Assembly (NCBI GenBank): GCA_964030785.1
Contig: OZ034972.1
Coordinates: 54,563,538-54,627,537 of the forward strand
Reading direction: 5' to 3'
DNA from: Siderastrea siderea
Lineage: Eukaryota > Cnidaria > Anthozoa > Scleractinia > Rhizangiidae
Length of the DNA: 64,000 bases
Shown here: positions 9,961 through 49,800 of the stretch, in pieces
Layout of the letters: every line of letters starts with the position of its first letter
How positions within the stretch are numbered: position 1 is the first letter of the stretch
The notes under the pieces: model-generated
The model's input: the letters and a program-made list of their open reading frames with translations, nothing else
Database searches by the model: none
What the model was told of the DNA's origin: nothing
Translations under genes and position numbers: made by a program

Positions 9961-12900
9961 TTACAACTGTATCTGTTTCTTAGATTTATGCATCTCTATC
10001 TGAATTTTACTTTCAAGAACGGCCATGAAAGCTTCCCAGTAGTACTCTTCTTCTTTTCTGGAGGCAGTGTAAATGTAATGTTTTGCGATAATCAAGCAGA
10101 GGTTTAAACCAAGTCGACGAGAGAAGTCATTGGCAACACCGTAAATGATCATGTTTTCATCAAGAGTTATTGACTCGGAGTTTTTGAAATTCCACCAATT
10201 AGTAAAATGAGACCAAAAGCTCTTAACTTTTGAGCAGGAAGCGAAAAGATGAGCTAGTGTTTGTCTTTCAGAGCATAGGTGACATTTATCGGTTTCTTTA
10301 AGTGCGTCTCTAAAAAGTGTTGAGTTTGTTGGCAGAATGTGATGTATAATTTTAAATTGAAAGATGGCAAGTCTGGTGTCCTTAGTAACTTTGAAAGGAA
10401 GGCTATATATGAGTTGTATTGTTTTTTCATTCAAATTTGCTTTTACCATCCTTTTTTCGGCAGTAGGTGTTACAAACTTTTTTTTGACAAAGAATCGTGT
10501 AGCTGATTTGCAAGAGAGCTTATTCAAAGGTATTCTATTGTTATCTTCACCATCCAAAGGCGCCTGGATGTTTCCTTTTAGGATATTAACCCATTCTCTA
10601 GGGATTGAGTGGCATACTCCATGATACGTAAGAAAGTTAGCTTTGATTTTAAATCTAGAGCAGAACTCAGGAAAAGATAGAAAAGCATTGTTTTGGAAAA
10701 TGTCTTTGATTTTAATGACTCCGGCTTCATGCCATTTTTTATAATAAACAGAAACACCACCAACTTTAATGAAGCGATTGTTCCAAATAATTTCATTCAA
10801 AACTTGTTCTTTGGTGTTAGGAGAAAAATAATTTATTTTTCCCCACGCGTAGAGAGCTTCCGAGTAAAAAGCAAGGGGTATTTCAATTTTAAGTGCTTTT
10901 AAGTCAAAATTACATTGAAGTAGAAACAAGCCTCCAACATCCCTTAGGTAGCTCAATGGTATGTAGCTCCAACTTGAAGTTTCATTACTGTCGTTGAGTC
11001 TTTTTATCCAGGAAACTTTAAGTGCATCGTTGATTATTTCAAAATCAGGCATATCTAGTCCACCTTTTTCTCTCGGGCCGATCATAGTCTTTTGTTTTAT
11101 TTTAACTTTCTTGTTCCACACAAATTGGGTAATTGCTTGATTTACCATGTTGACAAATTTCGAAGGAAAGGTGAGCACTGATGTATTATATACGAGTTTA
11201 GAGATTGCGAGAGATTTTAGAATCGTTATACGGCCATATAAAGTGAGGTTTCTAGGATACCATAAGTTGAGAAGGCTTTTCATTGAGTTCAGTTTTTGTT
11301 CGAAGTTTTTCTTATATGCAACTTCATCATCATGTGAAAAATGAATACCTAATGCGAGTATTGAGTTGGAAGGCCAAGCTATTCCAAGGGGCTCTGTTGT
11401 ATTGTTTCTGTTCGCGCCCAACCACATACCTTCAGTTTTGCTTTTATTAATCTCTAGGCCTGAACATTCCTGGAAGTTTGACAATAATTGGAACAAGTTA
11501 TTTGCAGATTTTAGGTCAGAGACAAAGGCAGTTGTGTCATCGGCATATTGAGAAAGCTTAAATTCTTTGTTGTGTATATTAATTCCTTGAATAGTTTTGT
11601 CAGTTCTTATTGCATTGGCTAGGATTTCAGCACATAGGACAAATAAAATACCTGAGAGTGGACAGCCTTGTCGAACGCCTCTCTCAGGCATGAAAAACTC
11701 AGACGCATATCCGTTGTTTATAAAGCAACTGGAGCAATCCGTGTAAAAGGTTTTTATCCACTTTTGAATGCATGGACCGAAGTTAAAAGCTTGTAGGGTC
11801 TTGTGAAGAAAATTCCAGTCGACCGTGTCGAAGGCTTTCTTAAAGTCAATGAATATAGCCAGCCCAGGGATGTTTTCTAATTCAGTTACTTTCATAATAT
11901 CCATAATGAGCCTAATGTTTTGACCAATATAACGCTCTTTAACGTATCCGGTTTGATCATCGTTGATTATTTTGGGAAGAACGTTTGAAATCCTATGAGC
12001 TATGGCTTTAGTTGCAATTTTGTAATCGACATTAAGTAGTGTCAGCGGTCTCCAGTTTTCAAGATATAGTTTGTCCTTACGTTTTTTTGGTATTACTTTG
12101 ATAATTCCTTGTTTTTGCGTTATATTCAAATGTTGATGTTCGAATCCGTAGTTTAGACTTTGTACCAACTCTTCACCCAGCATCGACCAAAAGCGTAAAT
12201 AGAACTCTACTGAAAGTCCATCGCTACCAGGGCATTTGCCCTTGGCGCACTGCTCTAAAATGTAAAGGCATTCCTCGTTACTGAGTGGGTGCTCTAGTTC
12301 ATTTTTTCCAGTTTCATCTAGCTTAGCAAGATTAGGATTCTCAAAGAAAAGATTGTACTTCGGATTGTTGCACGGTGCTGCAGTATATAGATTTTTATAG
12401 AACATCTTTCCTTGTTCTAGGATATCGTTCGGAGTAGTAATTTCTCTATCATCGTTTGTTTTCAATTTGGAAATGTGCGTCTTAAAATGGTGCCTTTTTT
12501 CTAAATTCAAGAAATATTTAGTGTTTTTTTCGCCTTGTTCATGCCAGCGTGTTCTACTTCTTATTATTGCGCCTTTAGTTCGATATTCCGCAATAGCGTT
12601 AAGTTCAGCTCTAAGACGATAAAATTTTAAAATGTTTTCCTTTGAACGCTCCGTCTTCAGCAAGGTCATCAAATGGTCAATTTGAGTTTGAAGGTTTTTT
12701 TCAGCATTTCTACGTTCTCTATTTTTCCGTTTTGTATACTGGACACAAAAGCCTCTCACTTCCATTTTTATCATGTCCCAGTAGAGACCTTTATCCTCTA
12801 GATAATTGTGCTTTGTTTTGAAATCTGGTATCTTGTTAGAAAGTTCCTGTATGAATTTTTCATCGTGCAGCAGAGAGTTGTTTATTTTCCAAAAACCTGG

Positions 12901-13650
12901 GCCTCGCTGAGTATATTCTTTTGATTGCAGATTAAGGATAATTGCAGAATGATCAGACAATGTGTAATGAACAATTGTAGAGTCTTTCACAGAGTTTGAC
13001 AAGTCTTTTGAAACCAGCCAGTAATCCAGCCTGCATTGTACTTTTAGAGAGTTGTTACGCCACGTGTATTGTGACTGATTGGGGTGTTGACTCCTCCATA
13101 CATCTTGTAGGTTGTATGTTTTGCATAAATTTTTGATCTCGCTAATTACTGCTTTTTTTCTTTCAATAGAAGTTCCACCAGTTTTGTCTAAAGGTGCTAG
13201 GGCGCAATTAAAGTCGCCCCCAAGAATAATTTGCATATCAGCGTATTCTCGAAGGGTGTCATTGAGCTTTGAGAAGAATATTTTTTGACTGTTATTGTCG
13301 TTTGGGCTGTAAATATTGCAAAGTAGAAACGTAGAATCATACAGCGAGGCTTCTAGTAGTATATACCTTCCGTTTTTATCAGCTATAATGTTTTTAATGC
13401 GAACATCTAATTTCGGATTAAAGAGGATTGCAACTCCTTTTGAGTGATTTGTCCCGTGACTGAAGAAAAAATTCCCTCCCCATTCTGATTTCCACATTGC
13501 TTCTATGTTTTCCGTAGAGTAAGTTTCTTGAAGGAAGATTACATCAAATTTATAGTTGTGAAGCCATCTGAAAAGTTGTCTTCTTTTTCTTGTTTGGTTT
13601 AAACCTCTTGCATTGAGTGAGCAAAACGACGCTTTAAACGGTGTTGTCAT
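9961..13650 (-). CDS. LINE ORF2: endonuclease and reverse transcriptase
   Basis: 1229 codons, uninterrupted. Residues about 5-240 are an APE-type endonuclease (SLNARGLN, QETYSTE, GGDFNC, LDYWLVSK, LSDHSAI). Residues about 480-780 are a reverse transcriptase (RPLTLLNVDYKI, FIDFKKAFDTVDW, GVRQGCPLSG, QYADDTTAF with the catalytic DD). Near the C terminus is a CCHC knuckle (CHLCSERQTLAHLFASC). The protein nicks target DNA and copies the element RNA there. The order and the RQGCPLSG form fit the L1/Tx1 clade. No stop or frameshift is visible, so the copy may still be enzymatically competent in spite of the truncated 5' region. Confidence 0.93.
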   Translation of the reverse strand: MTTPFKASFCSLNARGLNQTRKRRQLFRWLHNYKFDVIFLQETYSTENIEAMWKSEWGGNFFFSHGTNHSKGVAILFNPKLDVRIKNIIADKNGRYILLEASLYDSTFLLCNIYSPNDNNSQKIFFSKLNDTLREYADMQIILGGDFNCALAPLDKTGGTSIERKKAVISEIKNLCKTYNLQDVWRSQHPNQSQYTWRNNSLKVQCRLDYWLVSKDLSNSVKDSTIVHYTLSDHSAIILNLQSKEYTQRGPGFWKINNSLLHDEKFIQELSNKIPDFKTKHNYLEDKGLYWDMIKMEVRGFCVQYTKRKNRERRNAEKNLQTQIDHLMTLLKTERSKENILKFYRLRAELNAIAEYRTKGAIIRSRTRWHEQGEKNTKYFLNLEKRHHFKTHISKLKTNDDREITTPNDILEQGKMFYKNLYTAAPCNNPKYNLFFENPNLAKLDETGKNELEHPLSNEECLYILEQCAKGKCPGSDGLSVEFYLRFWSMLGEELVQSLNYGFEHQHLNITQKQGIIKVIPKKRKDKLYLENWRPLTLLNVDYKIATKAIAHRISNVLPKIINDDQTGYVKERYIGQNIRLIMDIMKVTELENIPGLAIFIDFKKAFDTVDWNFLHKTLQAFNFGPCIQKWIKTFYTDCSSCFINNGYASEFFMPERGVRQGCPLSGILFVLCAEILANAIRTDKTIQGINIHNKEFKLSQYADDTTAFVSDLKSANNLFQLLSNFQECSGLEINKSKTEGMWLGANRNNTTEPLGIAWPSNSILALGIHFSHDDEVAYKKNFEQKLNSMKSLLNLWYPRNLTLYGRITILKSLAISKLVYNTSVLTFPSKFVNMVNQAITQFVWNKKVKIKQKTMIGPREKGGLDMPDFEIINDALKVSWIKRLNDSNETSSWSYIPLSYLRDVGGLFLLQCNFDLKALKIEIPLAFYSEALYAWGKINYFSPNTKEQVLNEIIWNNRFIKVGGVSVYYKKWHEAGVIKIKDIFQNNAFLSFPEFCSRFKIKANFLTYHGVCHSIPREWVNILKGNIQAPLDGEDNNRIPLNKLSCKSATRFFVKKKFVTPTAEKRMVKANLNEKTIQLIYSLPFKVTKDTRLAIFQFKIIHHILPTNSTLFRDALKETDKCHLCSERQTLAHLFASCSKVKSFWSHFTNWWNFKNSESITLDENMIIYGVANDFSRRLGLNLCLIIAKHYIYTASRKEEEYYWEAFMAVLESKIQIEMHKSKKQIQL

Positions 13651-14308
13651 ATCCTGATATTGTGTGATTCTTTCTTACTGAAACAGTTGTAATCCGATTT
13701 GTAATATTTAACATATTTGGATTGTAATAACATGTTGCTATCCTTATAGCTTGTTTTTAAAAATGTGAACAAGGCATAATGGTTTCTTATAAGATTGATT
13801 GAGTATAATTGTTTACTTGTAGATATTACTGTATTACTAGATAGTTGCCAAGAAACCTGTAGAAGAAATATTAACATAGAAACGAAAATCCTAAGAACTA
13901 CAAAAATACAAGACACACGTGAACGACAGAAACGTGCCAGTTTATAGAGAAAAAAAAAAAAAAAAAACTAGCACGGTGAAACTACTTTGCCGAGCGCCGA
14001 GTCAGCAAAGGAAGGCAAGGGAGCTGTATGATTATTAAATAACTAAATAGAAAGACTCCCTTGAATATATAAACAATGGCGAGAATGCATCTAGGGAATA
14101 TGTCGCAAGCACTTTGCAAACGTAATTAATGCACGAAAGAAAGAAATACACATTTCGACAAGTAAGCAAAACTAAATAACCGTCAGTAGACTGAAGCCCG
14201 AAAACTTTAAATAAAAAAGCAAGAAAAAGAAACAAATATTAATAGAAAAAATTACCAAAAAAAAGAAAAAAAACTAGCCGATTTATGTTTTTAGAAATAG
14301 GATTAGAT

Positions 14309-15517: not shown

Positions 15518-15737
15518 GACTGTACAGACTAGTATATATATATATATATACATGCATACAATGGCATCTCCGCAGATTGACAACTGTATTTAGGCATTCT
15601 CTGTGACGTCGGAAGTGACCAAAAGGCCTCAAAGAACAGCTCCCCACTGAAGCGATCATCAATGTAAAGAGAACATGCGATCCTTAAACTCCTGAACGTT
15701 TTGTGGGACCTAGCTAGTCTAACCATTTGGTATACAA
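15518..15737. repeat. segmental duplicate, copy 1 (partner 17021-17232)
   Basis: About 215 bp are nearly identical to 17021-17232, from CTGTACAGACTAGTA to GGTTTGGTATACAAA-like sequence. Copy 1 contains a longer (TA)n run at 15531-15550. Open frames on the minus strand occur in both copies but differ downstream, and I do not recognise them. Confidence 0.85.
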
Positions 15738-16197
15738 AGGCAAAGGGCCCTAATGCTTTCGGGCTATAACCATTGGTTTAATTTCAGCAGGAAAAATTAT
15801 CAGAACCCCCTTTCTGAACTCCGCGGAATGAGATTTTAGCCTTTAAAGAAAAAGATAGGGGATGGCCGCTCAACAGGAGTTCGACTGTATATTTAGTAAA
15901 TCATGAAATAAATTTATAGGTGTGAAATTTTAAGACAAACAACTTATTTAGAAAGAATAAATATATGAAATTCATACTTTTGAACTGCGGAATAAAGTAA
16001 TGAATGTAGAGACAATAGTCGCAGTTATTTACGCAACTACATTCATAACTTAATTAGAATAGTTTACCATGCCAGAATTAGAACTTACTAAAGGTTCCAT
16101 CTTCACCCTTGACTGGGTTATCGAAAACGTCCGTTTCGTAAATCGGCAAAGCACCACAGAACTCCAGAATCTCCTTTGTAAGCGAAGATCTATCGGC
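15738..16197 (-). pseudogene. truncated duplicate of BRICHOS exon 5 and adjoining intron
   Basis: This stretch aligns closely with 21849-22296, from GCCCTAATGCTTTCGGGCT to GATCTATCGGCA. On the minus strand it contains the 3' two-thirds of the BRICHOS gene exon 5 (from the end of the GPADRSS segment through CGALPIYET) and the same donor. A 6-bp insertion follows the donor. Homology stops abruptly at 16197, so the 5' part of the exon and its acceptor are missing. It is a fragment of a former tandem copy of the gene. Confidence 0.75.
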
Positions 16198-16461
16198 ATA
16201 TCATTCTCGTTGATAGTGAAGCACAGTGAGCGCCAAAAAAAGCATTCTACTTTTCATTTACGTCAAGGGGAGGTGGGGGGCAAGAAGTTATTTCAGCTTT
16301 TGGAGAGGGTGGTTTAGTTTAACTTTACGGGATATTTCACCCCCCCCCCCCCCCTTCCTCCTGCTAATTATTGCACAGTCCCAAAGAGCGATTGGTTTGT
16401 TTTATTGAGAACTACAGTGCATACTAGTGGAAATAGTAACACGGCTTGGGCTAAAAGGATT

Positions 16462-16810: not shown

Positions 16811-17020
16811 AGTATTTATGTAGGATCCATCCTCGGATACCCAGGGGCAGTTAGTGGGGGCGGGGGAAAGTCTATACGGGCGAAAAATCTGCGAAGAAAA
16901 GTCAAGAACGAAAATAGTCCGGGAGCTAGGAGCACAGAAATGATGTTTTGCACTTCCAGAGTACTGAAAAGGTTTGAACACGGATTTCAATGGATTAACA
17001 CCTCCAATTTCACAAGAACT

Positions 17021-17232
17021 GTACAGACTAGTACATATATACATACATGCATACAATGGCATCTCCGCAGATTGACAACTGTATTTAGGCATTCTCTGTG
17101 ACGTCGGAAGTGACCAAAAGCCTCCAAAGAACAGCTCCCCACTGAAACGATCATCAATGTAAAGAGAAGATGCGATCCTTAAACTCCTGAACGTTTTGTG
17201 GGACCTAGCTAGTCTAACCCGTTTGGTATACA
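17021..17232. repeat. segmental duplicate, copy 2 (partner 15518-15737)
   Basis: This is the near-identical partner of 15518-15737. Here the unit is followed directly by CR1-like LINE debris on the low side, whereas copy 1 is followed by BRICHOS-derived sequence on the high side. Confidence 0.85.
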
Positions 17233-17718
17233 AAAAAGGAGTTCTTCCAGCTGAAAGGAAGCGTTACTCCTAGGCCACTATCCCTAGGCCCCAGCACTAA
17301 CACCAGGATACTTTTGTGAATCATGGAAAAGCGAGATGCGGTTACAATCCACACTTTCATAAATTTACACGTGTAAAGTCGGAATACACGAAATTAGGAA
17401 CTCCCAAAGCGTTTTCAGTGCGAACATGGTATCGATCATCCCCAGAAAGAACCTGGCAACAAGGCTTAACCTTGCGTTCTGTGGTTCGATCATTATCAAA
17501 CGTACGAGATGGGGCGTTCAGTAACCAACTCACCCACTCTTCCCCAGACACAAATTTCTCCCGTCTTGAAATTGTTTTTGGTGACGAACTGCGAAAATTG
17601 TTTGCATGAGTTGTGGTTCCTGAAAAACCTTGCTCGGGTATTCCGCGCTCTCAAGCTCAAAGCCCTATAGGATCCCTTAAGGGTTTAAGGTCTTTTTTAG
17701 GCCCGACAAGTATCATTG

Positions 17719-21358: not shown

Positions 21359-21672
21359 CTAAGGGCATACGAAGTCACAGCAATAACCAAAATCAGCGTT
21401 ACCGACACTATGCTCTTCAACGCATTTATAAGTGAAAGCGTGTCCAACAGGCGGAGTTTCATCAGTCCTGTGACAGTACATATAGTAGAAGCAGCTACGA
21501 TCTAGTCGCTTCATTTGACATCGAAGAACCCATGTCTCTGGCTTCTGTTGACAATTCTTTTCCTTTACATATTTTGAGGGATCACCCCGTTGATCCAGCG
21601 ACTTGATACAGGATGTGTAATTGCGGATATACCGGGTGATCTGGCGCCTTTGACGTCTAGTTGGTTTTACAG
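21359..21672 (-). CDS. BRICHOS gene exon 6: furin site and Cys-rich peptide
   Basis: The acceptor AATTTGCTTTGCAG supplies two bases that complete the phase-1 codon from exon 5. It encodes VKPTRRQRRQITRYIRNYTS and then a Cys-rich tail ending YCCDFVCP. RQRR fits the RxRR furin consensus. The released peptide would start with Gln, have nine Cys and many Arg/Lys/Tyr. An independent start (ATG at 21703) would give only a very short hydrophobic leader, so I prefer the spliced reading. Confidence 0.65.
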
Positions 21673-21773
21673 CTGCAAAGCAAATTACGGACAGAAAGGT
21701 CATCCAACAGATCCATGACAGATTTTATGTATTTATGTATTGTTAACCGAGAAGGCCTCCCCTATAAGCCTGG

Positions 21774-21848
<75 letters not shown>

Positions 21849-24800
21849 CAAAGGGAAAGAGCCCTAATGCTTTCGGGCTAAAACCATTGGTTCAATTTCA
21901 GCAGGAAAAATTATCAGAACCCCCTTTCTGAACTCCGCGGAATGAGATTTTAGCTTTTAAAGAAAAAGATAGGGGATGGCCGCTCAACAGGAGTTCGACT
22001 GTATATTTAGTAAGTCATGAAATAAATTTAAAGGTGTGAAATTTTAAAACAAACAACTTATTTAGAAAGAATAAATATATGAAATTCATACATTTGAACT
22101 GCGGAATAAAGTAATGAATGTAGAGACAATAGTCGCAGTTATTTACGCAACTACATTCATAACTTAATTAGAATAGTTTACCATGCCAGAACTTACTAAA
22201 GGTTCCATCTTCACCCTTGACTGGGTTATCGAAAACTTCCGTTTCGTAAATCGGCAAAGCACCACAGAACTCCAGAATCTCCTTTGTAAGTGAAGATCTA
22301 TCGGCAGGACCAGTCACCAGCACAAGATGCTCCTTTGTCGTGACAGGAAGTTCACCAGGCTGAGAAGCTGCCTGCGAAATACAAAATAAAATTTTTAACG
22401 TTGCTGATATCTGCAGTGAGCAATACCTGGGCAATAATTGCTGGCCCCAGAGAGGCCCACAACGCTAATCTTGACAGTGACCAGCGGATTGCGTACCACG
22501 CGTGCGCGCCACGTTTATAACAGGGCCATTCAAACCGCAAGTTGAAAATTTCTTCTTCCACCAAGAACGATCAGAATGTGAAAAATGTGTCAATCGCAGC
22601 AGTATCATAGCCTGCAAACGCAGACGTATTCCCGGCTGTCGCTAAGCAGTCACGATGAAGCTTGCGCGAAGATTGCCTCAAAGCGTTGAAATGGAGGAAT
22701 TTAGCTTCGAATTGAAGCCAAATTTGCCTCTCGGATTTTGAATAACGATCGTAACTTGTTGTTCTGTTTATGTAACACAATTGAGGATCATTCGCTTGTG
22801 TTCGGGGCTCGAACAAAATTAAAATTTTTGTCTGCTCTAGGCAAAAAAATCGTTGTTGCAGATTGATGTAAAGTCACACTTGATTCTGCGTGCACAGTTT
22901 CAAGTCTGGAGAACTTTTCGCTTCTCGGAGAGAATGAAAACAACTAACCAAGAAATGTTCATTTTGAGGGAAGTAGATCATGTAACAAAGTGTTCTCATG
23001 CTATCTCAGACTCTGAAGCTGCCAAAGCTATCGAGTTGAAAAACTTGCACGTAAACAGCGTTCGGTGTTTTTATAAGAAGGAAAGGACGTTTAGAACTTT
23101 CATAAGATTTTAGCGTATAAATGACCATTAATGAGTGAGTGTTTGTAACTGTAAAAATAAACTGCCCTTATACATTTTCTTGCCTGGTCAATTACGTTTG
23201 GCAATATTAAACGCTGCCAACAGGCTACAGTGAAATACTTAAGCAAAGTTTGGAACCGGCGACGTATTTATGTTACGTGTTTATACCGGTTGAACATATA
23301 TTGAAATTGCATGTTTTTGATACCACATCTGATACTTCAGAAAAAAATCCGCTGTAAATGATCTTTTTTCGCCTGGGAATGTTCTTGAAAATTCAGCCAT
23401 TTGTAACTCCGCCTTTATGAGTTATCGACAATTTAGTGTTTTTTATAAAAATGTAAGCTTGGATCCTGCTTCTGGTTCAATCTCAAAAGCGTGTAAACTC
23501 GCTCGAGTACCGCCTCTCCTTCCCTGACCCCTCACAAGACAACTAGTCTATCAATGCCCGCACTTCCTAACCCGTGGTTACCCCTAGTATTAACAATTAT
23601 TCTTTGAAATCTCTCTGATTAGCGCAGAATATCACAGGAAGTAATCTCGACAACAAGCGATATCAACATTTTTAAAAAAATTGTAGTCATTAGTCATAGT
23701 CTTTATTTCAATTGATAAAATACATAACAACAGTTACAATAGTAAAAATATTAAAAAGAACCAAACAAAGGAATAAGAATAAAAATTGAAAATTAGTTAC
23801 AATATGATGACAATTATATTAAAAAACTATATAACTATATAAGAATTAATTGCTAAATTATATCTAAAAGCTAACCGATTACTAAAACTATTCTTAAAAC
23901 GCTCAGTGTTTAGTAGAGGCAATACAATATTTGATGACCGTAATTGATGAGCAGAACAGTGCCGCTTTGGTAGTAAATTGTACAGTGGGTGGTTTCCGTC
24001 TGTACTGATTTTTTCAAATAGTGTGCGGTCCGCATTCTCAAGTAGGTCATTTATATTGATTAATTAATAGTGCTGGGGGAGCTAAGAGTTCTTGGAGTAC
24101 ATAGTGTAAGACCTCACATAAGGTAACAAAGTGACAAGGTAGCCAAATTTATTGTAAATTGTCGTGGTCTTATTCCAAGTACAATTTTTAGACATTCATT
24201 CTAAATGCTCGGGACATTATATGTGATTTTACTCCAAGTGCAATTGCAACACATTTATTTTAAATGCTCGGGATATAATGTAATGTATTACACCACCACC
24301 ATCTTTAGTAAGTGCCGAAAAATGCGATTATCAGATTTATCGAAATGAGTTAAAAAACAGATGCTGTTTGCACTTCGTTGACAGTTGTTTATAAGATTTT
24401 TGTTTGTTTTTCTTAGTGATAAAAGCGATCACTCGAGATTACCACCGACTATGCCACCCAAAGTGGAGGTCAAGACCCTCTCTGCTGGAAAAAGAGATAA
24501 CGCTATACACGTATTTTATGAATTATTCGATGAATTTGAAGCACTTTGAAACCTACAGGGCAATTAGGAAACAGAAAGAGGCCATTGCTAAAAGATTTGT
24601 CGATGAGGATGTCACTTCAGAAGACGAAAGAACAGCAGAAAATCAGAAATCTGGAGATGAAGTCAAAATAAGATATGTGAAACTTTGCTTGGTAGTGTGC
24701 TAAGTGAAGTTAAGTTTATTGAGCGTGAGTCTGGAAACATTCTTATCAGTCACAACTACAAAACAACAATGGAGAGTCTTTGTGGCTTTGTTGACTTTTT

Positions 24801-27800
24801 TTTTTCGACAGATACCGGATATTCTCAAGTAAGTCGTTTGTATGTTATAAGTATAGAATGAAGTGAATCAAAGTGCAATACAGCGTTTTTCCCCAACTAG
24901 TAAGCTTCAGTTTAGATACCCTTCCTAAACGATTATCTTCATATCATAATTCTTTTCCAAACTGCGTAATGTATGATTTATAACCCTTTACCCTAGCCTG
25001 TGTGACACACAATTGTTCAATGAACTGGACGGCCGTGCACAGCATCATAACAAGGTTTTTATAATATTTCATAATACTGTCGAAAAGGTGAAAGAATCGA
25101 CACTCTACCTTAATGCTTGGATGTTACATATTGAAAACAACAAATCCTTTTTAGCACAAACATTGATATTCCTGTGATCCAAAATATTCAACTGTTCCAC
25201 GGTTTCATGCTGGAGTGTACTCTGAATTTTTGTACAGCCTACTTTCTGCTGCTTGGGAAATCGCTTATACTGATAACTAGGTTTCTGAATTGACCTGAAT
25301 CAAAAGTTTCGTATATCGTGTTGTGAATGTCACGCTACAATAAAACGCAGAGCGACAAAAGGAGTTGTAGTTTTATGTTTTATTGGATGAATGAAGTTCA
25401 AAAGAGGCATGATGATTTTGGGGTGATGAGTCTAAATTTTTTTTTATGCCATAAAAAAATTAAAGATGTACGCTTTTCAATTTTCGATATATTTGACAGT
25501 CTTCAGCCAGCAAAGTCCCCAGCAAGCATTAAAAAGACGCGAAAAGCGATCTATTTTTCAAATAAACTCCGAAAAGTGACACGAGACACTAAGCCCAAAA
25601 AGCTTTTGATTTAGCTTATCAGGGAGGCTGTTCCACAGCTTCAAGGCACAAATAGAAAAAGCCCGATCCCCGTTGGTCTTCATGTTGGAAGGTGGAACTT
25701 TTAGAAGCTTTTAGTTTAAAGTCTTGAAACTGCTCAGCACAGTATTAGAAAGGTAACTGAGGCAAATAATAAATTTTCTATTCTCTGTATACTATATAAA
25801 ATTCTATTTACTCCAAAAAGCGGAAAAATACACCAATGGCATTGCGTTAGGGGCAGCAGTGTTGGCACAGTGGTGAGAGCGCTCGCCTCCCAGCAACGTG
25901 GTCCAGGTTCGATTCCCGGACCCGGCGTCATATGTGGGTTGAGTTTGTTGTTGGTTCTCGCCTTGCTCCGAAGATTTTTCTCTGGGCTCCACGGTTTTCC
26001 TCTCTCCGGAAAAACCAACGTTTACAAATTCCAATTCAGCTAGCGCTGAATAAGAGAATTGGTCTTCCTTTTGAAAACCGATGAATGCTGTCGTAGTTTC
26101 GTTTGAAAGTGCACAGATTTATCGTCTTGCTGAGGCTATATTTTATAGTTCGATATCTGAGATATTAACACAAGTTTATAACTGTTTGGTATGATTTTTA
26201 AGTCCTTGTCGACAATAATTCTTCGCAGGGTGTTTTAAAAGCAGCTTATCTTTTCCTTTCAACGATAATGTATTTTATGCTCAAGGATACAACAAAAAGT
26301 CTGACAACTATATGTGAAAGCTATTTGCGATACAATTTAAAAAATAAAACTATTTATAATACAATTTAAGTAATAAAACTATCTACAGTACAATTTTAAA
26401 AATAAAAACTCCGTACAATACAATTTTAAGAAATAAGCCAAACGCTCTTTGGAAAATAAAATCTAAACTACTTTCTAGAAAAATTCAATTACAATTAAAA
26501 ATAAAGTAGTAAAAACAATACAATACAAGAAAGCGATATCTAAAAATTATAAAACAAATGTTTTTCACCGTTACAGAATTGCAGCAAAGTTCTTGTAACC
26601 GTTATTTTAAATATTATTCTAAATAGATCATTTTATTTACCCGTGCAATGTCCGCCTTCAGTTTCTTTGGAGATGGCATGGAAGGGTCCATGTTGGCAAT
26701 GTAGCAGACCTTTCGAGACAGATCCTTGGTAACCGTCACACGCTGCAAAAACACGAAGCTAATGTCAAGAAGAGTTATTAACCTGGCCTCGTGCAAATGA
26801 AAAAAAATACACGACTTTTTATTCCATAATCAAGGTCATCTGTCCTCAAGGCAATTGCATGTTATGAACGAATGTTAGCCAAAAACAAACACGGTGCGCT
26901 TTAAAAATAATCAAATTCGCTCTCCTTCTGCATATGGGTAGCCTTTGGTAAAATGGTAACGCAATGAAGATTTTTTTCCAAACATAATAGTTTCGAATTT
27001 CCGAGAAAAATGGTATTTTCGATATCGATCAAGACCTCCAGACTCTCCTGACTGGGCTGAAAAATGACCATTTTCATTCGAATCGCTTGTCAAAACTATT
27101 GAGCATGCGCAGAAAAGTATTGGATACTTATAAATCCAAAGTATCTTACACTCCATATCAGCTGGTTGGTCGAAAAATTGTCGTTTTTTAAGATTTAGGA
27201 TTTTAACTATCGAAGGATAGCTCCTTTAATTTATGTAAAATTTGGTTCAGGCAAATGACTCCGTACTCCTCAGAAAATTCTTCAAATTAGCACACAAAAG
27301 TTATGAAATCACCCCAGCTTTCGCATGCGTAACCAAAAGTCAACCACCGTATTCGCAATTAAATCAGTTAGAACGATCAGGATATCCTGACTGTTACAAA
27401 TGTTTCTTTTTTTTAAATTTTTTTGCAGCGAAGTTCTCAGTAAACGTGTTCCCAGAACACAAAATAACAATAGCATTTTTTTACAAAGGATTATTTTCCT
27501 CAATAAGTAAACTTAGAATTACTCGACTATCTTAACTTTAATTACATTATGTAGCTTCTTAAAAAACATTGCATATCATTATCAAGTAATAATCAGCTTT
27601 AAGATAACTGCAGCAGGAAATTGTAAATGGAGATCCCCTAAGAAAAGTTTAAGGAAATTTACTAGAATCTCTTTCCAATTATATCATTGCTGTGTAATAA
27701 CGAGAATTGTAAGAAGCTATGGGGCAAATAAATCGATTCAAATTCAATTTAATCCCCAATACAGCGTTTCAGTTCCCTGTAGGTTATGCTAATTTCCAAC

Positions 27801-30407
27801 AGACTGCCCTGAAAACGGGCGCAAGTAGAATTGCCGAAATCACAAGCCAAAACAAGCGCTTTCACTGAAATTCTTGCTGAATGGATCCGTCTCTGAGTAA
27901 TGCTAAAACAATTAAACGGCTCGCTCTCGGTATCTTTCGACTTATGATAGTTCCAGCCGATAGAAACCTTGAGTTTGCCGTTTAATAATTGTTAAATACA
28001 TACAAAAGGAAATTCCGGGTTAGTATTGAACTTACCTTCTTAAAATTGTGGTAAAATTCAGCAGCATTGACATCGTTGTGAGCAGGAACTCGAAACACTT
28101 CAACGTCCTGCTCTTCATCGACTTCGATTCGTTCTGTAAAAGGTGTTCCCTTTTCTACAATGGGCATTTTATAACGATCAACCTGGACAATAATTAAAAA
28201 CAAATTCACATATTAAATTCAAATTTCCTCTTCACTATCCATTTTTCCTATCAAGGAGTTATTTTTTTTGATGTGGTATTGTTTTCTTGTCTTTATATGT
28301 TTCCACTTAAAATGGGTGTTTTCTTGTTATATCAGTTCGATATCAACGTTTTGAAGTAAAAATAGTTCACACAACTATGCATAACTGTAGTTCTCAGTAT
28401 TGCGGGCCCACAGTCTGCCCTAGCTGCTGTCACGTGAGCAGCGTTACGCTTACGTGGAGTGCCGTTCAGGATCTAGGGACGTGTGACTACGAGAAACTGC
28501 AGAATTACTCCAGAAAATCGATAAATAAAAAGCTAAGTACTACCTGCTTCGACAGGGCGTTTCTTTCAAATAATATTTACAGTACCACCAGAAGGACATT
28601 CTTCGAGGATATCGAAAAAAGACGACATTTTTAGTCTAAGTACACTTATTTATAAGTGTCTAATTAATGCAAACAAAGGCAAATTATTTTATTGTTTTGT
28701 TAACTTTCAGAACAGTATTTGAGTCTGTATGGAATGGAGGTTTATTTCTTTAAAATAAAAATGATTTACTTAACACTATTTAATAAATCAATGAAGTCAA
28801 CCAGTGGATTCAAAAGTACCTCGACCCCTCAATCGTGGAAAATGGAAAGAATTCTTTGATCTCGAATTTGCCAAGTTTGGAGGAAACTTAATCTTTAAAG
28901 GTAACCTCAAAGCGGATTGTTCTAAAACAATACCAGTTAAAAACCCTTTCGAAAGAGAATTGCTAGAAATATGGTCGGAAGTCAGTTTTGAAGAAGTCAT
29001 AAAAAACAGACAGCATTTTTTTGAGCAACCTCTATGGCACAACTCACTAATCAGGATTGGCAACAAGCCAATTTTTCTACAAAAAAATTTCTTCCTTCAT
29101 GGTGTCCTCAAGACAAAAGATTTAATGAAAGACTCCTGCAGCTACCTATCCTAGAAAGACTTTACTAACACCTACAAAATACAAATAGATCCTCTGAAAT
29201 ATTACGGACTTATATCTGCCTTAAACATCTCTATAAGCTTCCGAATCTACCAAATGAACTTTATGATCCAGTCTCACCTAAACCTTTATATTAGACTTTA
29301 TGTGTAAGAAACCTATTGATACTCTTTTCATTCAGTTCCATTTGACACTGCTCAGACATCTGGGGCGCTTTTAACAATATGGACCGCAAGGAATGGGAAA
29401 AGGACACCATTCAAAGACTTCATACTCAATTTTATAAACAGTACATTGGCTTAAACAGAAGAGCCCCAGCTTTGTTTCTCGTAAGGAAATGGGAAGACTT
29501 TCTCTTTAATTAATCATCTTCCATTCGTTTTTTGATTGAAAACTTCCCTTATAGTGAACTGACAAAGAGTGATACACTTTCTTAGCCGAATCACTGGTGG
29601 GAGTTTATAGAATTTGTATATCTTGTAAAAAAAAATTATTTTCGTAAAAATATTTTTTTAGCGTTTTGGTTCTTAGTTAGTTTTATTGTAAAACAACTCT
29701 TTTCCCTTATATTCATTTATTTAGCTTTTTCATACGCGTACACGTTTAACGAGTTTGTGGGAGCTCCTAGGTGTTTACGTGTTTAACTAAATTGAAGGAT
29801 TGGATTGACCGAAGTTTGCTTTTGACGCGGACATTCAATAATAAAGTCACGCCACGTGAGCGGTCTTCGCAGTCAGTAATCAAGTAATGCCTGCAGCAAT
29901 TGACAAGGCAGTTTTCTGTTTCCAGGGTCAAATAAATTCCACACGATTCTGTCAAAAAATTTATCTCTATACGAAAGAACGAACGAACGATCGATAAAAG
30001 GATAATTTTTTCCATAAACTAAAAAGTGCGAAATTGTAATGGTTTTCAGAACTTGTATTCAGTAGAAAAAGGACCGTCGAAATATATGTGATAACAACAG
30101 GAAAAGTGGTACTCCGTATATCTGTCCTAAATTGTTTACCGTTAGTAATTTCAGAGTGATAACATTATTGTTGGGTTGAAGTTTCAACTTTAAAGGCAAC
30201 AAAGTCCAAATGTAAACCGATTGCTGCCGAGTGCGATGCATGAGATGGGTCGATAAAACTAACCTTTCCAAGAGAAAATGGCAGCAGGCATGAAAAAGTC
30301 AGGCTGATAACTGCAACTGCAAGGATCTAAAACGAAATGAGAAAACAATGAATATGTAACAAAGAAAAACATTTATCTCTAAGACTGAATAAATGATTTA
30401 CCTTCAT
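21359..30407 (-). CDS. secreted BRICHOS proprotein with furin site and Cys-rich C-terminal peptide
   Basis: Six coding exons (30402-30407, 30264-30326, 28036-28182, 26641-26742, 22197-22371, 21359-21672) join with matching phases into about 268 codons. Order: signal peptide (about 1-22), acidic linker, BRICHOS domain (about 50-155) with the family's invariant Asp (TKDLS) and two Cys (KVCYI, EFCGALPIYE), linker, RQRR furin-type site (ends near residue 174), then a C-terminal peptide of about 94 residues with nine Cys. BRICHOS domains act as intramolecular chaperones for aggregation-prone segments in the secretory pathway. In annelid antimicrobial precursors the bioactive peptide follows the domain. 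Release by a furin-type convertase is inferred. TATA box and poly(A) signal are present. I do not recognise the C-terminal peptide family. The fifth-to-sixth exon join is predicted, not proven; without it the frame stops at 22168. Confidence 0.72.
21772..21847. repeat. (GAT)n microsatellite, about 25 units
   Basis: A pure GAT/ATG trinucleotide run. It lies in intron 5 of the BRICHOS gene, about 100 bp upstream (in gene sense) of the exon 6 acceptor, and marks the edge of the segment duplicated at 15738-16197. Confidence 0.95.
22062..22165 (-). repeat. tail of the tRNA-like repeat family, headless copy
   Basis: ATATATGAAATTCATA..TTTGAACTGCGGAAT, GTCGCAGTTATTTACGCAACT and flanking words match the non-tRNA part of the 247-bp units at 47285-48410, in the minus orientation. 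The tRNA-like head is absent. A second copy lies at 15950-16055 within the duplicated block. Confidence 0.65.
22197..22371 (-). CDS. BRICHOS gene exon 5: second Cys
   Basis: The acceptor TTGTATTTCGCAG is strong. The exon encodes 58 codons plus one base; it starts AASQPGELPVTTKEHLVLVT and includes EFCGALPIYE, the second invariant Cys region. A consensus donor A/GTAAGT ends it in phase 1. Ignoring the donor, the frame reads nine more codons to TAA at 22168. That shorter form could be a read-through isoform. Confidence 0.78.
23684..24010 (-). repeat. CR1/L2-like LINE 3' end fragment
   Basis: The minus strand encodes HPLYNLLPKRHCSAHQLRSS followed by LPLLNTERFKNSFS. This is the C-terminal motif of CR1/L2-like reverse transcriptase proteins. 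A short AT-rich 3' UTR ends AATAAAGACTATGACTAATG without a poly(A) tail. It lies in intron 4 of the BRICHOS gene, same strand. Confidence 0.65.
24417..24703 (+). CDS. possible plus-strand exon, unknown
   Basis: A strong acceptor (TTTTTGTTTGTTTTTCTTAG) is followed by two overlapping open frames. One contains MPPKVEVKTLSAGKRDNAIH and stops early. The other runs 95 codons with an acidic patch (DEDVTSEDERTAEN) to TAA at 24703. I do not recognise either. It could be an old exon or transposon debris with a frameshift. It lies antisense in BRICHOS intron 4. Confidence 0.22.
25455..25720 (-). repeat. LINE RT C-terminal fragment
   Basis: The minus strand encodes LKVPPSNMKTNGDRAFSICA followed by LKLWNSLPDKL. 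This is the 'GDRAFSxxAPKLWNSLP' motif found near the C terminus of many non-LTR reverse transcriptase proteins. The frame decays downstream. Confidence 0.6.
25847..26090 (+). repeat. tRNA-derived SINE, second family
   Basis: A tRNA-like head has an A-box-like TGGCACAGTGGTGAGAG and B box GGTTCGATTCC. It is followed by a body (TTGTTGTTGGTTCTCGCC, TTCCTCTCTCCGGAAAAACC). The head differs from the SINE at 1219 and 60623. It lies in BRICHOS intron 4. Confidence 0.75.
26321..26436. repeat. AT-rich minisatellite, unit about 30 bp
   Basis: Four diverged units of the form CTATTTATAATACAATTTAA plus AAAATAAAA follow one another, about 200 bp downstream (in gene sense) of BRICHOS exon 4. Confidence 0.7.
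26641..26742 (-). CDS. BRICHOS gene exon 4: conserved Asp and first Cys
   Basis: The acceptor GTGTTTTTGCAG and donor GCACGG/GTAAAT frame 34 codons starting RVTVTKDLSRKVCYIANMDP. The Asp in DLS and the Cys in VCYI are the BRICHOS signature pair, as in ITM2-type proteins (LDL..CYVIPLN). It continues PSMPSPKKL, where relatives have VMPPRNL. Phase 0 to 0. Confidence 0.82.
28036..28182 (-). CDS. BRICHOS gene exon 3: linker and BRICHOS start
   Basis: The acceptor TTAATTATTGTCCAG and donor AAGAAG/GTAAGT frame 49 codons. An acidic stretch (RIEVDEEQDVEVFRVP) leads into the first BRICHOS strand, ending FYHNFKK. This is comparable to the 'hDF' segment of known BRICHOS proteins. Phase 0 to 0. Confidence 0.8.
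28800..29620 (+). pseudogene. degenerate LINE ORF2 C-terminal region
   Basis: The plus strand reads ENRQHFFEQPLWHN-like sequence and NKPIFLQKNFFLHGVLKTKD, which resembles the WNNRFIKVGG..YYKKWHEAGVIKIKDI segment of the intact L1-like ORF2 at 9961-13650. Further on, GLNRRAPALFLVRKW and other short pieces appear in shifted frames. Many stops; clearly dead. It lies antisense in BRICHOS intron 2. Confidence 0.5.
30264..30326 (-). CDS. BRICHOS gene exon 2: signal peptide
   Basis: The acceptor TCTCATTTCGTTTTAG and donor GGAAAG/GTTAGT frame 21 codons, ILAVAVISLTFSCLLPFSLG then K. The segment is strongly hydrophobic and typical of a cleaved signal peptide, phase 0 to 0. Confidence 0.7.
30402..30407 (-). 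CDS. BRICHOS gene exon 1 (coding part)
   Basis: ATG AAG followed directly by donor GTAAAT. It is the first ATG after the TATA box at 30503-30511. The two codons join in phase 0 to exon 2, giving a signal peptide that starts MKILAVAVIS. Confidence 0.65.
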
Positions 30408-30502: not shown

Positions 30503-30511
30503 CTTTTTATA
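30503..30511 (-). promoter_or_regulatory. TATA box of the BRICHOS gene
   Basis: TATAAAAAG on the minus strand, 96 bp upstream of the ATG at 30407. Transcription should start near 30480 and give a 5' UTR of about 70 nt without upstream ATG. A strong TATA box suits a highly or inducibly expressed secreted product. Confidence 0.65.
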
Positions 30512-46800: not shown

Positions 46801-49800
46801 TGGTGATTTATTTGACATTCTTGGATGGAAAAATCTAGCTCGCAAGCAGCAAATTCAAAGAGCCACAATGGTTTACAGGTCTTTGCACGGGTTGGCTCCA
46901 GACTATCTTTTCTCTAAATTTGAAAACCGAGAAATCGCGTACAACCTAAGGGACTCTGAGAACAAACTCAATGTTCCACTACCGCGCACTAACTATTACA
47001 AAAATAGCTTTACCTATAGCGGCGCGGTTTTATGGAATAGACTTCCTTCCAACGTAAGACAAGCAGAGTCCCTTGGACAATTTAAAGCTTTAGTAAAACA
47101 AGTACTATAGGGCACGGCATTCGTGGAAAGCAGCTTTTTCTTTATAATTAGCTTATCACTAGAAATTTATTACGTATTTTATTCTGTATGTATGATTGTA
47201 TGTAGTGTTTTAAAAAAGCTTATGTTTTAACCGTGTGGAAATAAAGATTACCTCTCACCTCACCTCTCCAATAGAAACGTCTCTTAAATGTAAAGAAGAT
47301 CCTCGCAGTTATTAACGCAACTTATGCAGTTGCGAAAAGAAAGCCTGAAAAAATCAGGCTTGCCGGGATTCGAACCCTGACCTCTGCGATACCGGTGCAG
47401 CGCTCTAACCAATTGAGCTAACAAGCCAACTGGGAGCTGGTCATTAAATTGGTTCGTAATATACCCGGGAAAGATGAAGATGAAGTTATGAATATATGAA
47501 ATTCATATATTTGAACTGCGGAATGAAGAATTAAATGTAAAGAAGATCCTCGCAGTTATTAACGCAACTTATGCAGTTGCGAAAAGAAAGCCTGAAAAAA
47601 TCAGGCTTGCCGGGATTCGAACCCTGACCTCTGCGATACCGGTGCAGCGCTCTAACCAATTGAGCTAACAAGCCAACTGGGAGCTGGTCTATTACGAACC
47701 AATTTAATGACCAGCTCCCAGTTGGCTTGTTAGCTCAATTGGTTAGAGCGCTGCACCGGTATCGCAGAGGTCAGGGTTCGAATCCCGGCAAGCCTGATTT
47801 TTTCAGGCTTTCTTTTCGCAACTGCATAAGTTGCGTTAATAACTGCGAGGATCTTCTTTACATTTAATTCTTCATTCCGCAGTTCAAATATATGAATTTC
47901 ATATATTCATAACTTCATCTTCATCTTTCCCGGGTATATTACGAACCAATTTAATGACCAGCTCCCAGTTGCCTTGTTAGCTCAATTGGTTAGAGCGCTG
48001 CACCGGTATCGCAGAGGTCAGGGTTCGAATCCCGGCAAGCCTGATTTTTTCAGGCTTTCTTTTCGCAACTGCATAAGTTGCGTTAATAACTGCGAGGATC
48101 TTCTTTACATTTAATTCTTCATTCCGCAGTTCAAATATATGAATTTCATATATTCATAACTTCATCTTCATCTTTCCCGGGTATATTACGAACCAATTTA
48201 ATGACCAGCTCCCAGTTGGCTTGTTAGCTCAATTGGTTAGAGCGCTGCACCGGTATCGCAGAGGTCAGGGTTCGAATCCCGGCAAGCCTGATTTTTTCAG
48301 GCTTTCTTTTCGCAACTGCATAAGTTGCGTTAATAACTGCGAGGATCTTCTTTACATTTAATTCTTCATTCCGCAGTTCAAATATATGAATTTCATATAT
48401 TCATAACTTCAGAAACGTCTCTGTTACGAAATTTAAGGAAAGTGTTTAAAACAAAAGATTGCGTACGGTTGTAAAAATTCCAACATATTTGCATCTTGTT
48501 TGCTCCTTTGATGTTTGCCGGACATCAAAACAACTTTCCTCTATTAACTATGCTAAAGGGAAAGGGAAAACAGTGATAACGGTTACCAGTCTGGCAAAAA
48601 TGAGGCTTGCAAATTATTCTAATTAAAAGAATTCCAATGATTCTGAGATTATCTACCATTTTTGGGTTGTTGAATGTCAACCTGACAGATTTTTCGCTTG
48701 ATATTCCACGCCTTCAAGAAAAAAATCTCAGCGGCGTGAAACATCAAACGCAAAAACCCCCACTCTTCGCATTTTACACGCATGCATTCATTGATATTTT
48801 ACTCTTTCCAAGAAAAACAAAACTTTGGGTGACGTCTTTCTTAGCAACGGCTTGATTGACACAGATTTGCACCGTTTCCCGGCACCGCTATGCCGTCAAA
48901 GAAAAGTGCCGACTTTCTTACCCCCTGAGCCTAAGTAACAGTCCGTTAGCTTAAATAGCACTCCGGCTAGCCTAAACTGAATAGTTCCTTATCCCACCTG
49001 CTGACTCATCAGCATTAAGATGTGGGGAGACTCCTGTCGAGCAGAAATGACAGGGAGCACAAGAGTGGATGAGTCAGCAAGAGGGGTGGGAGGGAGGGCC
49101 GACCAGTTCCTAGATGTCCTCGCGAAATGGCACACCTTGCATTAATTATCATATCTTTTATAATGCCACTGAGTCATCACGTGGGATAATGAATATTACA
49201 TGAACTGTGAATAGTTCCTTATCCCACCTGCTGACTCATTAGCATTAAGGTGTGGGGAGACTCCTGTCTCGCTACACCTTGAAACACCAGTGTTTGATGT
49301 TTACAATACTAATCCACTGCCAGTCCTTATCTAATATTCACACATCCCTTCTCCCAACCTTACAATTCCCCAGTCCTTAATTTATTTCCTCCCAAGCCTA
49401 ATCATATTCATATCCCAGTCCTAACTCAATTTTTTTTGAAACCGAGAAATGCCCCAATTAACGACTGATAGTCGTATAGAATCCACCTAAGCTGTTTTGT
49501 TTTTTGGTGGCTAAAGATCACGAGAGTCTAAAGAGAAATACGCAAACGCATCCCTCGCTCCACCCGGCCAAAGTACTTAGTTCAGCTTTAAATAGTGTTC
49601 TACCATTTAAGCCGTCCTTGAGTCCACATGAGATGGTATATCAGGCATGTGAGCTCCCGCCAGCGCGAAAAAAAAAGAATCGCTGAACCACTCCAAGGCA
49701 ATTTGCAGGCCATAAAGAGTAATATCGCGCGAAACGAAGATATGAAGAAACGAGCTAACAGGAGAGCCCAGCTCGGGCTGCGTTTGAATTAAACAGCTAG

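What the first reader, a model, noticed from the sequence alone, without database searches (positions are those of the whole stretch)
21359..30407. BRICHOS precursor with a furin site and an unrecognised nine-Cys C-terminal peptide
Six exons with matching phases, a TATA box and a poly(A) signal predict a secreted precursor: signal peptide, acidic linker, BRICHOS domain with its Asp and two Cys, RQRR, then a basic Tyr/Arg-rich peptide of about 94 residues with nine Cys. In annelids BRICHOS precursors release short beta-hairpin antimicrobial peptides from the C terminus. Here the released part would be much longer and Cys-rich. I know of no described cnidarian family with this layout. An odd Cys count would leave one free thiol or allow dimers.
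Basis: partly seen in the sequence, partly recalled or inferred. Interest (0 to 1): 0.88.

Follow-up and report, generated by a model that had tools for sequence, protein, structure and literature searches.

The report
Coral peptide precursor with fast-evolving tail
This coral gene makes a precursor protein whose front half is a folding helper and whose tail is a cysteine-laced peptide that looks built to be cut off and released; the tail changes very fast between near-identical copies while the helper stays fixed, which points to an arms-race role such as defence, not yet tested.

Summary
The gene is real: six exons (minus strand, 30407 to 21359) encode 268 residues; Pfam BRICHOS scores 47.5 bits (cut-off 25). 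Relatives in Oculina, Montipora, Acropora and unnamed sources align over the whole length, across the disputed last junction. One detail of the finding is wrong: the conserved BRICHOS Asp is Asn69 here.

The tail is a domain Pfam does not know. Eight cysteines are invariant in 31 of 31 aligned sequences; the ninth (C225) is in 22, needs four changes on the tree, and is probably the free thiol. Related terminal exons lie at 24 places on seven contigs of this genome.

Against a 98.7% identical copy on the same contig, 19 of 128 substitutions fall in 280 bases of the peptide (P 6e-14); 76 codons hold about 18 non-silent and 0 silent substitutions. Best reading: a BRICHOS-chaperoned, furin-released, diversifying host-defence or interaction peptide. 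BRICHOS plus cleavage site plus Cys-rich tail has precedents (chondromodulin, annelid peptides), so it is a new variant. No activity was tested.

The parts
21359..30407 (-). gene, start codon to stop codon, six exons, 268 residues
   Evidence: rebuilt model; full-length relatives
30402..30407 (-). exon 1: ATGAAG (Met-Lys) followed by GT
   Evidence: the same micro-exon 76 bases before exon 2 in L015
30264..30326 (-). exon 2: rest of the signal-like segment (Gly22 invariant in the 15 rows of A2)
   Evidence: no signal-peptide predictor was run
28036..28182 (-). exon 3: acidic linker and start of BRICHOS; holds Asn69 at the place of the conserved Asp
26641..26742 (-). exon 4: BRICHOS, first conserved Cys (C85)
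22197..22371 (-). exon 5: BRICHOS, second conserved Cys (C142), spacer; phase-1 donor
21359..21672 (-). exon 6: cleavage site, whole predicted peptide, stop codon
   Evidence: related terminal exons at 23 other places in the genome
21644..21655 (-). furin-type site RQRR (residues 171-174)
   Evidence: RX[KR]R in 24 of 31 sequences
21362..21643 (-). predicted released peptide, residues 175-268, 94 aa, nine Cys (186, 205, 216, 225, 231, 248, 262, 263, 267); hotspot of amino-acid divergence
30505..30511 (-). TATA box (TATAAAA), about 100 bases before the start codon
21101..21142 (-). three AATAAA poly(A) signals
15734..16198 (-). partial copy (96%) of the second half of exon 5 and the start of intron 5, beside a 220-base repeat; not a gene by itself

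Best explanation
This is the precursor of a secreted, cysteine-scaffold effector peptide. A signal peptide sends the protein to the ER. The BRICHOS domain acts as a built-in chaperone while the Cys-rich tail folds and oxidises. A furin-like convertase cuts after RQRR and releases a peptide of about 94 residues, held by four disulfides on eight invariant cysteines; the ninth (C225) stays free or links two chains. The peptide belongs to a multigene coral family whose loops diversify under selection while chaperone and Cys frame stay fixed. The likeliest role is host defence or control of microbes on the coral surface; other antagonistic or recognition roles are possible. Shown here: gene structure, BRICHOS, family, Cys frame, excess amino-acid change in the peptide. 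Inferred: secretion, folding help, cleavage, disulfides, selection as the cause of the excess, function.
For: Gene and family. BRICHOS fold: the model of the Oculina relative P0002 has Bri2 BRICHOS (8rnu, probability 0.98, E 0.026) and proSP-C BRICHOS (2yad, 0.98, E 0.19) as its first two PDB matches, none below E 0.001; sequence match to ITM2B E 4.5e-5. Release: RX[KR]R in 24 of 31; site and peptide lie together in one exon, apart from BRICHOS. Scaffold: eight Cys in 31 of 31, spacing C-x(8-27)-C-x(7-12)-C-x(6-10)-[C]-x5-C-x(9-17)-C-x(11-13)-CC-x3-C. Excess change: window against the copy C7b, 67.9 substitutions per kb in the peptide against 2.0 in intron 5 and 4.5 in intron 4; 17.75 non-silent to 0.25 silent over 76 codons, non-silent against noncoding odds ratio 16.7, Fisher P 2e-15; none of the nine Cys codons differs among the window, C7b and C266 copies. 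Second pair L036/L039: 1 non-silent change in 116 codons of exons 3-5, 35 in 71 codons of exon 6. Across corals (27 rows): tail/BRICHOS rate ratio 3.68 (bootstrap 3.0-5.0) on branches outside one clade without the cleavage motif, 0.77 (0.42-1.21) within it.
Against: No transcript, peptide or activity data. The peptide is only weakly cationic (+3), and cleavable relatives range from -5 to +10. Silent sites in exon 6 taken alone do not reject neutrality (2 silent of 26 placed changes, P 0.07). In L036/L039 silent changes in exon 6 are raised too (dS 0.243, dN 0.241; silent against noncoding P 0.04), so gene conversion or a mutable stretch may add to the signal. C7b has a frame break in exon 6 and may be a dead copy or an allele. 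The AlphaFold model of exon 6 is poor (pLDDT 61). The contrast with the clade lacking the motif rests on one clade, and one cleavable pair (P0009/P0019) also has a low ratio, 1.37.
Confidence: 0.58

Rival explanations
1. The BRICHOS domain itself is the working part: a secreted stress chaperone, with the tail only a regulatory or anchoring piece.
For: Coral BRICHOS genes rise in heat: up to 380-fold in Stylophora (PMC5299404, passages) and about 6-fold early in Montipora capitata, where they are listed among chaperone functions (PMC8590396, passage). One clade has lost the RX[KR]R motif but keeps the tail.
Against: The tail keeps eight Cys in 31 of 31 and, outside that clade, evolves 3.7 times as fast as BRICHOS, with amino-acid change concentrated in it. 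A mere anchor would not be expected to diversify.
Confidence: 0.12
2. The released peptide acts on animals (nematocyst or gland venom component) or on other corals (allorecognition or competition), not mainly on microbes.
For: Excess amino-acid change in loops over a fixed Cys frame, local gene copies, only weak positive charge.
Against: No positive lead to a known toxin: Pfam none for exon 6, PDB profile best E 0.3, PDB fold best E 0.36 from a weak model. No toxin collection was searched. Expression site unknown.
Confidence: 0.15
3. The peptide is a matrix or developmental factor, as chondromodulin is in cartilage: a furin-released eight-Cys domain that acts on cells.
For: Same order of parts as chondromodulin: BRICHOS, RERR site, eight Cys in four disulfides (PMC11173128, passages). 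Two BRICHOS proteins are enriched in settling Pocillopora larvae (PMC12960093, passages).
Against: Cys spacing differs (chondromodulin Cys 79, 83, 99, 103, 109; PMC3492907, passages). Recent copies diverge mainly by amino-acid change in the peptide, unlike a conserved signal.
Confidence: 0.1
4. The excess of differences in exon 6 is made by gene conversion or a mutable stretch, not by selection; the peptide is otherwise ordinary.
For: Eight of the window's ten own changes in the three-copy comparison lie between codons 193 and 215, as a converted tract might; in L036/L039 silent change is raised too.
Against: Window against C7b has almost no silent change (0.25 of 18) in 76 codons, and each of three copies has its own non-silent changes: 9, 9 and 6, against 1, 0 and 1 silent. 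No nearby donor is known: the closest other match in the genome is 84% identical (C266).
Confidence: 0.13

Closest known systems
Annelid BRICHOS-related antimicrobial peptides (arenicin, alvinellacin, capitellacin, nicomicin, HfBRI, AmBRI-44a)
   Same: Signal peptide, BRICHOS in an acidic proregion (nicomicin abstract), basic cleavage site, C-terminal peptide; multigene; a few members long and Cys-rich (HfBRI-75 and -91: 11 Cys, weakly cationic, function unknown; PMC10745061 section 2.1).
   Different: Typical members are short, cationic hairpins or helices. In Alvinella the chaperone diversifies and the peptide is monomorphic (PMC5431198, abstract and section 24): the reverse of the pattern here. 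No sequence link between the peptides was tested; their sequences were not on hand.
Chondromodulin-I and tenomodulin
   Same: BRICHOS, furin site RERR (chondromodulin), C-terminal domain with eight conserved Cys and four disulfides (PMC11173128, passages).
   Different: Type II membrane proteins of vertebrates, 120-residue mature part with a hydrophobic tail, and different Cys spacing (PMC11173128 and PMC3492907, passages).
ITM2/BRI family
   Same: Closest solved BRICHOS by sequence (8rnu, E 4.5e-5) and first in the fold search; furin-released C-terminal peptide.
   Different: Membrane protein; released peptide of 23 residues (PMC9714404, passages).
Coral BRICHOS genes reported in heat stress and larval settlement
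   Same: Probable overlap with this family (inference): 238 BRICHOS domains in 15 coral species (PMC5299404, passages), two predicted antimicrobial BRICHOS proteins in Pocillopora settlers (PMC12960093, passages).
   Different: Described at the level of the BRICHOS domain or as predicted peptides; in the passages I read, no Cys scaffold, gene repertoire or selection on the tail. I could not read their supplements.

Membership tests
BRICHOS superfamily | Pfam PF04089 above its curated cut-off | tested here: met
   47.5 bits against 25
BRICHOS superfamily | two conserved cysteines | tested here: met
   C85 and C142; Cys in every row of A1 and A5 that has a letter there
BRICHOS superfamily | conserved Asp 16 residues before the first Cys | tested here: not met
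   Asn69 in the window, and in copies C7b and C266; Asp in nearly all relatives. Not disqualifying: 2.7% of single BRICHOS domains have Asn (PMC9627735, section on evolutionary conservation)
BRICHOS superfamily | N-terminal hydrophobic segment | tested here: inconclusive
   hydrophobic residues 3-21 read from the sequence, Gly22 invariant in A2; no signal-peptide predictor was on hand
Annelid BRICHOS-related antimicrobial peptides | C-terminal peptide behind a basic convertase site | tested here: met
   RQRR; RX[KR]R in 24 of 31
Annelid BRICHOS-related antimicrobial peptides | clearly cationic peptide | tested here: not met
   net +3 of 94 residues, pI 8.4; cleavable relatives -5 to +10. HfBRI-75/-91 are not clearly cationic either
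Annelid BRICHOS-related antimicrobial peptides | antimicrobial activity | not testable with these tools
   needs the peptide
Annelid BRICHOS-related antimicrobial peptides | sequence kinship of the peptide part with HfBRI-75/-91 or AmBRI-44a | not tested
   their sequences were not on hand; the hits of the three protein searches bear coral names or none
Chondromodulin/tenomodulin | furin site of RXRR type after BRICHOS | tested here: met
   RQRR
Chondromodulin/tenomodulin | eight conserved Cys in the released part | tested here: met
   eight invariant in 31 of 31, by number only; the window has a ninth
Chondromodulin/tenomodulin | Cys spacing (79, 83, 99, 103, 109 in the mature protein) | tested here: not met
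   window spacing 18, 10, 8, 5, 16, 13, 0, 3 against positions named in PMC3492907
Chondromodulin/tenomodulin | type II membrane protein with cytosolic N-terminal part | tested here: not met
   hydrophobic stretch begins at residue 3
ITM2/BRI | short (about 23 residue) released peptide | tested here: not met
   94 residues after RQRR

The most novel reading that the evidence does not exclude
Stony corals carry a large repertoire of BRICHOS-chaperoned peptides on one nine-cysteine frame, spread over several chromosomes, whose released part diversifies under positive selection while its chaperone is frozen, the reverse of the Alvinella case. The heat-induced 'chaperone' genes of bleaching studies would then be mainly effector precursors that shape or fend off the coral microbiota, and loss of the cleavage motif in one clade switches the diversification off.
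Probability: 0.42. Interest if true: 0.78.

Novelty: new variant of a known kind. Interest (0 to 1): 0.64.

Why it matters
Coral BRICHOS genes are among the extreme heat responders of one study, and their role was left open ('we can only speculate', PMC5299404, passage). If they are precursors of diversifying effector peptides, heat-stress data would have to be read in part as an immune or microbiome response, and corals gain a large, testable peptide family. The frozen-chaperone, fast-peptide pattern is the opposite of the one BRICHOS-peptide family whose selection I found studied (Alvinella), so the two make a natural comparison of what BRICHOS constrains. The invariant eight Cys plus one dispensable Cys give direct disulfide predictions.

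Tried and rejected
Rejected: chance exons (full-length relatives); exon 5 running on to the 22168 stop as the normal product (relatives continue into exon 6); 15734-16198 as a second gene (a fragment ending at a repeat; no further BRICHOS exon or tail was found near it in the window); membership in chondromodulin (Cys spacing). An early idea that the C266 copy lacks exons 3 and 4 was wrong: they lie about 75 kb away.
Full report
WHAT IS THERE. Its relatives with organism names are stony corals: Oculina patagonica, Acropora millepora, Desmophyllum pertusum, Montipora foliosa, so the host is taken to be a stony coral; the species is not known. On the minus strand six exons with GT/AG borders give one 268-residue frame: signal-like segment, acidic linker (net -4), BRICHOS (residues 63-148, 47.5 bits, cut-off 25), a variable spacer, RQRR, and 94 residues with nine Cys. 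A TATA box and AATAAA signals are in place.

IS THE MODEL RIGHT. One search found 22 proteins at E <= 0.001, with a profile, 39; many align over 100% of the query. P0007, P0033 and P0001 run through the exon 5-6 junction in one frame; P0007 also spans exon 4 on a contig of at most 989 bases, where the window has introns of 4.3 and 0.5 kb, so these look like spliced transcripts (I do not know how their source was made). In the same genome, the gene at C2 (L015), whose exons match P0004 best (itself 50% identical to the window protein), has the same borders and even the 6-base coding exon 1. The one contrary model, P0018 of Desmophyllum, stops in intron 5.

A CORRECTION. Hedlund et al. (PMC2751770, passages) name one Asp and two Cys as strictly conserved in BRICHOS. 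The window keeps both Cys (C85, C142) but has Asn69 at the Asp site; so do the copies C7b and C266, whereas nearly all relatives have Asp. A survey found Asn in 2.7% of single BRICHOS domains, in GKN1, GKN3, ITM2A and proSP-C (PMC9627735, one section). In proSP-C and Bri2 the Asp-to-Asn change made the domain more compact or dimeric and changed its activities, some lost or weakened and one raised (same paper, passages). What it does here is unknown.

THE TAIL DOMAIN. In 31 aligned sequences (the window exon and 30 relatives; nine further hits were left out as fragments, chimeras or departing frames) eight Cys are invariant; the ninth, C225, is present in 22 and needs four changes on the tree. 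So C225 is the likely odd thiol. Two other cases fit: in the same genome L045 (C5) has lost the stretch with the fourth Cys and keeps eight, while L047, L049 and L050 (C9) lack the third and the eighth Cys together, which suggests that these two pair; since the C9 genes are close kin this may be one event. So the 'invariant' eight are not invariant in the wider family. RX[KR]R precedes the tail in 24 of 31; six of the seven without it form one clade that also lacks C225. Pfam gave no domain for exon 6. AlphaFold on exon 6 gave four strands at pLDDT 61, too weak for fold claims. The full-length model of P0002 has a good BRICHOS part, with Bri2 and proSP-C BRICHOS as the first two PDB matches (E 0.026 and 0.19), and a poor tail.

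A REPERTOIRE IN ONE GENOME. Protein searches of the window's genome gave related terminal exons at 24 places, the window's included: C2 seven, C5 five, C7 two, C9 four, C11 one, C12 four, C266 one. Several are near-identical or decayed: six of the seven on C2 show a stop or a frame break in the exon (the seventh matched only in part), and C7b has a frame break. Ten loci were fetched because they had an exon-3 match; six showed the Cys pattern downstream at the first look, three more (L030, L034, L037) after a looser search, and one (L035) none in the 5.5 kb fetched. Five distant tails match the coral profile by profile-profile comparison, probability 94.8%, E 5e-8; these five had been chosen by Cys pattern, so this E-value is flattered, but each also sits behind matching BRICHOS exons. 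The pattern occurred once in the window and in none of 100 mononucleotide shuffles of it.

FAST TAIL, FIXED CHAPERONE. A second copy of the region lies about 270 kb away on C7, 98.7% identical over the 17.4 kb compared; three samples from both ends and the middle of the window also match, so either a duplication of about the whole window or more, or the other haplotype joined to the contig end. Of 128 substitutions over 17,327 aligned bases, 19 fall in 280 bases of the peptide (the stretch tested, 21359-21640, holds the stop codon and leaves out the first residue): 67.9 per kb, against 2.0 in intron 5, 4.5 in intron 4, 4.6 in intron 3, 10.1 in intron 2, 0 to 6.8 in exons 3-5, 13.3 in the first 300 bases after the stop (4 of 300) and 1 in the 32 bases of exon 6 before the peptide; binomial P 5.8e-14. 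Over 76 codons after the frame break the count is 17.75 non-silent to 0.25 silent; non-silent against noncoding change has an odds ratio of 16.7, P 2e-15. With the third copy (C266) changes can be placed on branches: window 9 non-silent and 1 silent, C7b 9 and 0, C266 6 and 1, plus one unplaced; none hits a Cys codon. Silent sites alone give only P 0.07, so the case rests on the comparison with introns. A second pair, L036 (C5) and L039 (C11), has 1 non-silent and 5 silent changes in 116 codons of exons 3-5 but 35 and 9 in 71 codons of exon 6; noncoding divergence is 0.103 per site, exon-6 dN 0.241 and dS 0.243. There both kinds of change are raised, so conversion or mutation may add. Across species, in the 15 rows of A2, BRICHOS is on average 63% and the tail 29% identical without Cys (BRICHOS higher in 105 of 105 pairs); in the wider set the tail differs more in 369 of 378 pairs and in 13 of 14 disjoint pairs. 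Close pairs with the motif, such as P0023/P0024 (2 of 83 against 22 of 67), show it most; among the 25 closest pairs the exceptions lie in the clade without the motif.

A NATURAL CONTROL. On one fixed tree of 27 rows, summed branch lengths give a tail/BRICHOS ratio of 3.68 (bootstrap 3.0-5.0) outside, and 0.77 (0.42-1.21) inside, the clade that lost the cleavage motif; 0 of 60 bootstraps overlap. If the tail diversifies only when it can be released, that links release with the selected function. It is one clade, perhaps orthologs only, and the cleavable pair P0009/P0019 (1.37) is also low.

HOW IT LIKELY WORKS. Steps shown: gene, domains, cleavage motif, Cys frame, family, excess amino-acid change. 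Steps inferred: ER import; BRICHOS shielding the tail while it oxidises (general BRICHOS role, PMC9714404 passages); cutting by a furin-like protease; four disulfides with C225 free; release outside the cell; an antagonistic role, most likely against microbes. The weak charge speaks against a plain membrane-lytic peptide, and in this it is like HfBRI-75 and -91, whose authors made no guess at function.

COMPARISON. It works like annelid BRICHOS peptides and chondromodulin but passes full membership in neither (see the membership table). In Alvinella the selection is reversed: chaperone diversifying, peptide monomorphic (PMC5431198, abstract and one section). Corals: BRICHOS enriched among extreme heat responders, 238 domains in 15 species (PMC5299404, passages); early heat response in Montipora (PMC8590396, passage); two BRICHOS proteins called predicted antimicrobial peptides in Pocillopora settlers (PMC12960093, passages; supplement not read, so whether they belong here is open). 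My literature searches (listings, some capped) showed no paper on this tail domain or on selection in coral BRICHOS genes; subscription journals are mostly not held.

VERDICT. A real gene and a real, largely undescribed coral peptide family; new variant of a known kind.

Noticed in passing
15734-16198, flanks 15519-15738 and 17018-17234: A 465-base copy (96%) of the second half of exon 5 and part of intron 5 sits beside one of two 220-base direct repeats (94%); its end coincides with the microsatellite at 21733-21848 in the gene. It looks like a gene fragment carried by a mobile element or by repair; the C7 duplicate has it too.
   Followed up: partly
9961-13674 (minus): Long open frame of 1237 residues with endonuclease and reverse transcriptase domains: a LINE-type element.
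   Followed up: partly
47354-48291 and 52449-52522: Five tRNA-Thr (GGT) predictions in about 1 kb on both strands in a repeated unit, plus a sixth at 52.4 kb; probably tRNA-derived repeats. An 82-base piece of intron 5 (22071-22152) matches stretches at 47.5-48.4 kb at 85%.
   Followed up: no
57519-57941 (minus): Open frame with a thrombospondin type 1 domain, perhaps an exon of a matrix or adhesion gene.
   Followed up: no
whole window against C7:54298001-54356000: Three sampled 3-kb stretches about 270 kb away on the same contig match the window's start, middle and end, mostly at 97-99% (one short piece 92%): a large recent duplication or an unpurged haplotype at the contig end.
   Followed up: partly
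P0022 (Oculina), P0035 (Desmophyllum): Public gene models fuse BRICHOS with reverse transcriptase or subtilase pieces, and P0018 drops the tail: this family is badly annotated.
   Followed up: no
C2:37665399-37678702: Five terminal exons repeat about every 3.3 kb on C2; four of the five show a stop or frame break and the fifth matched only in part: a decayed tandem array.
   Followed up: partly
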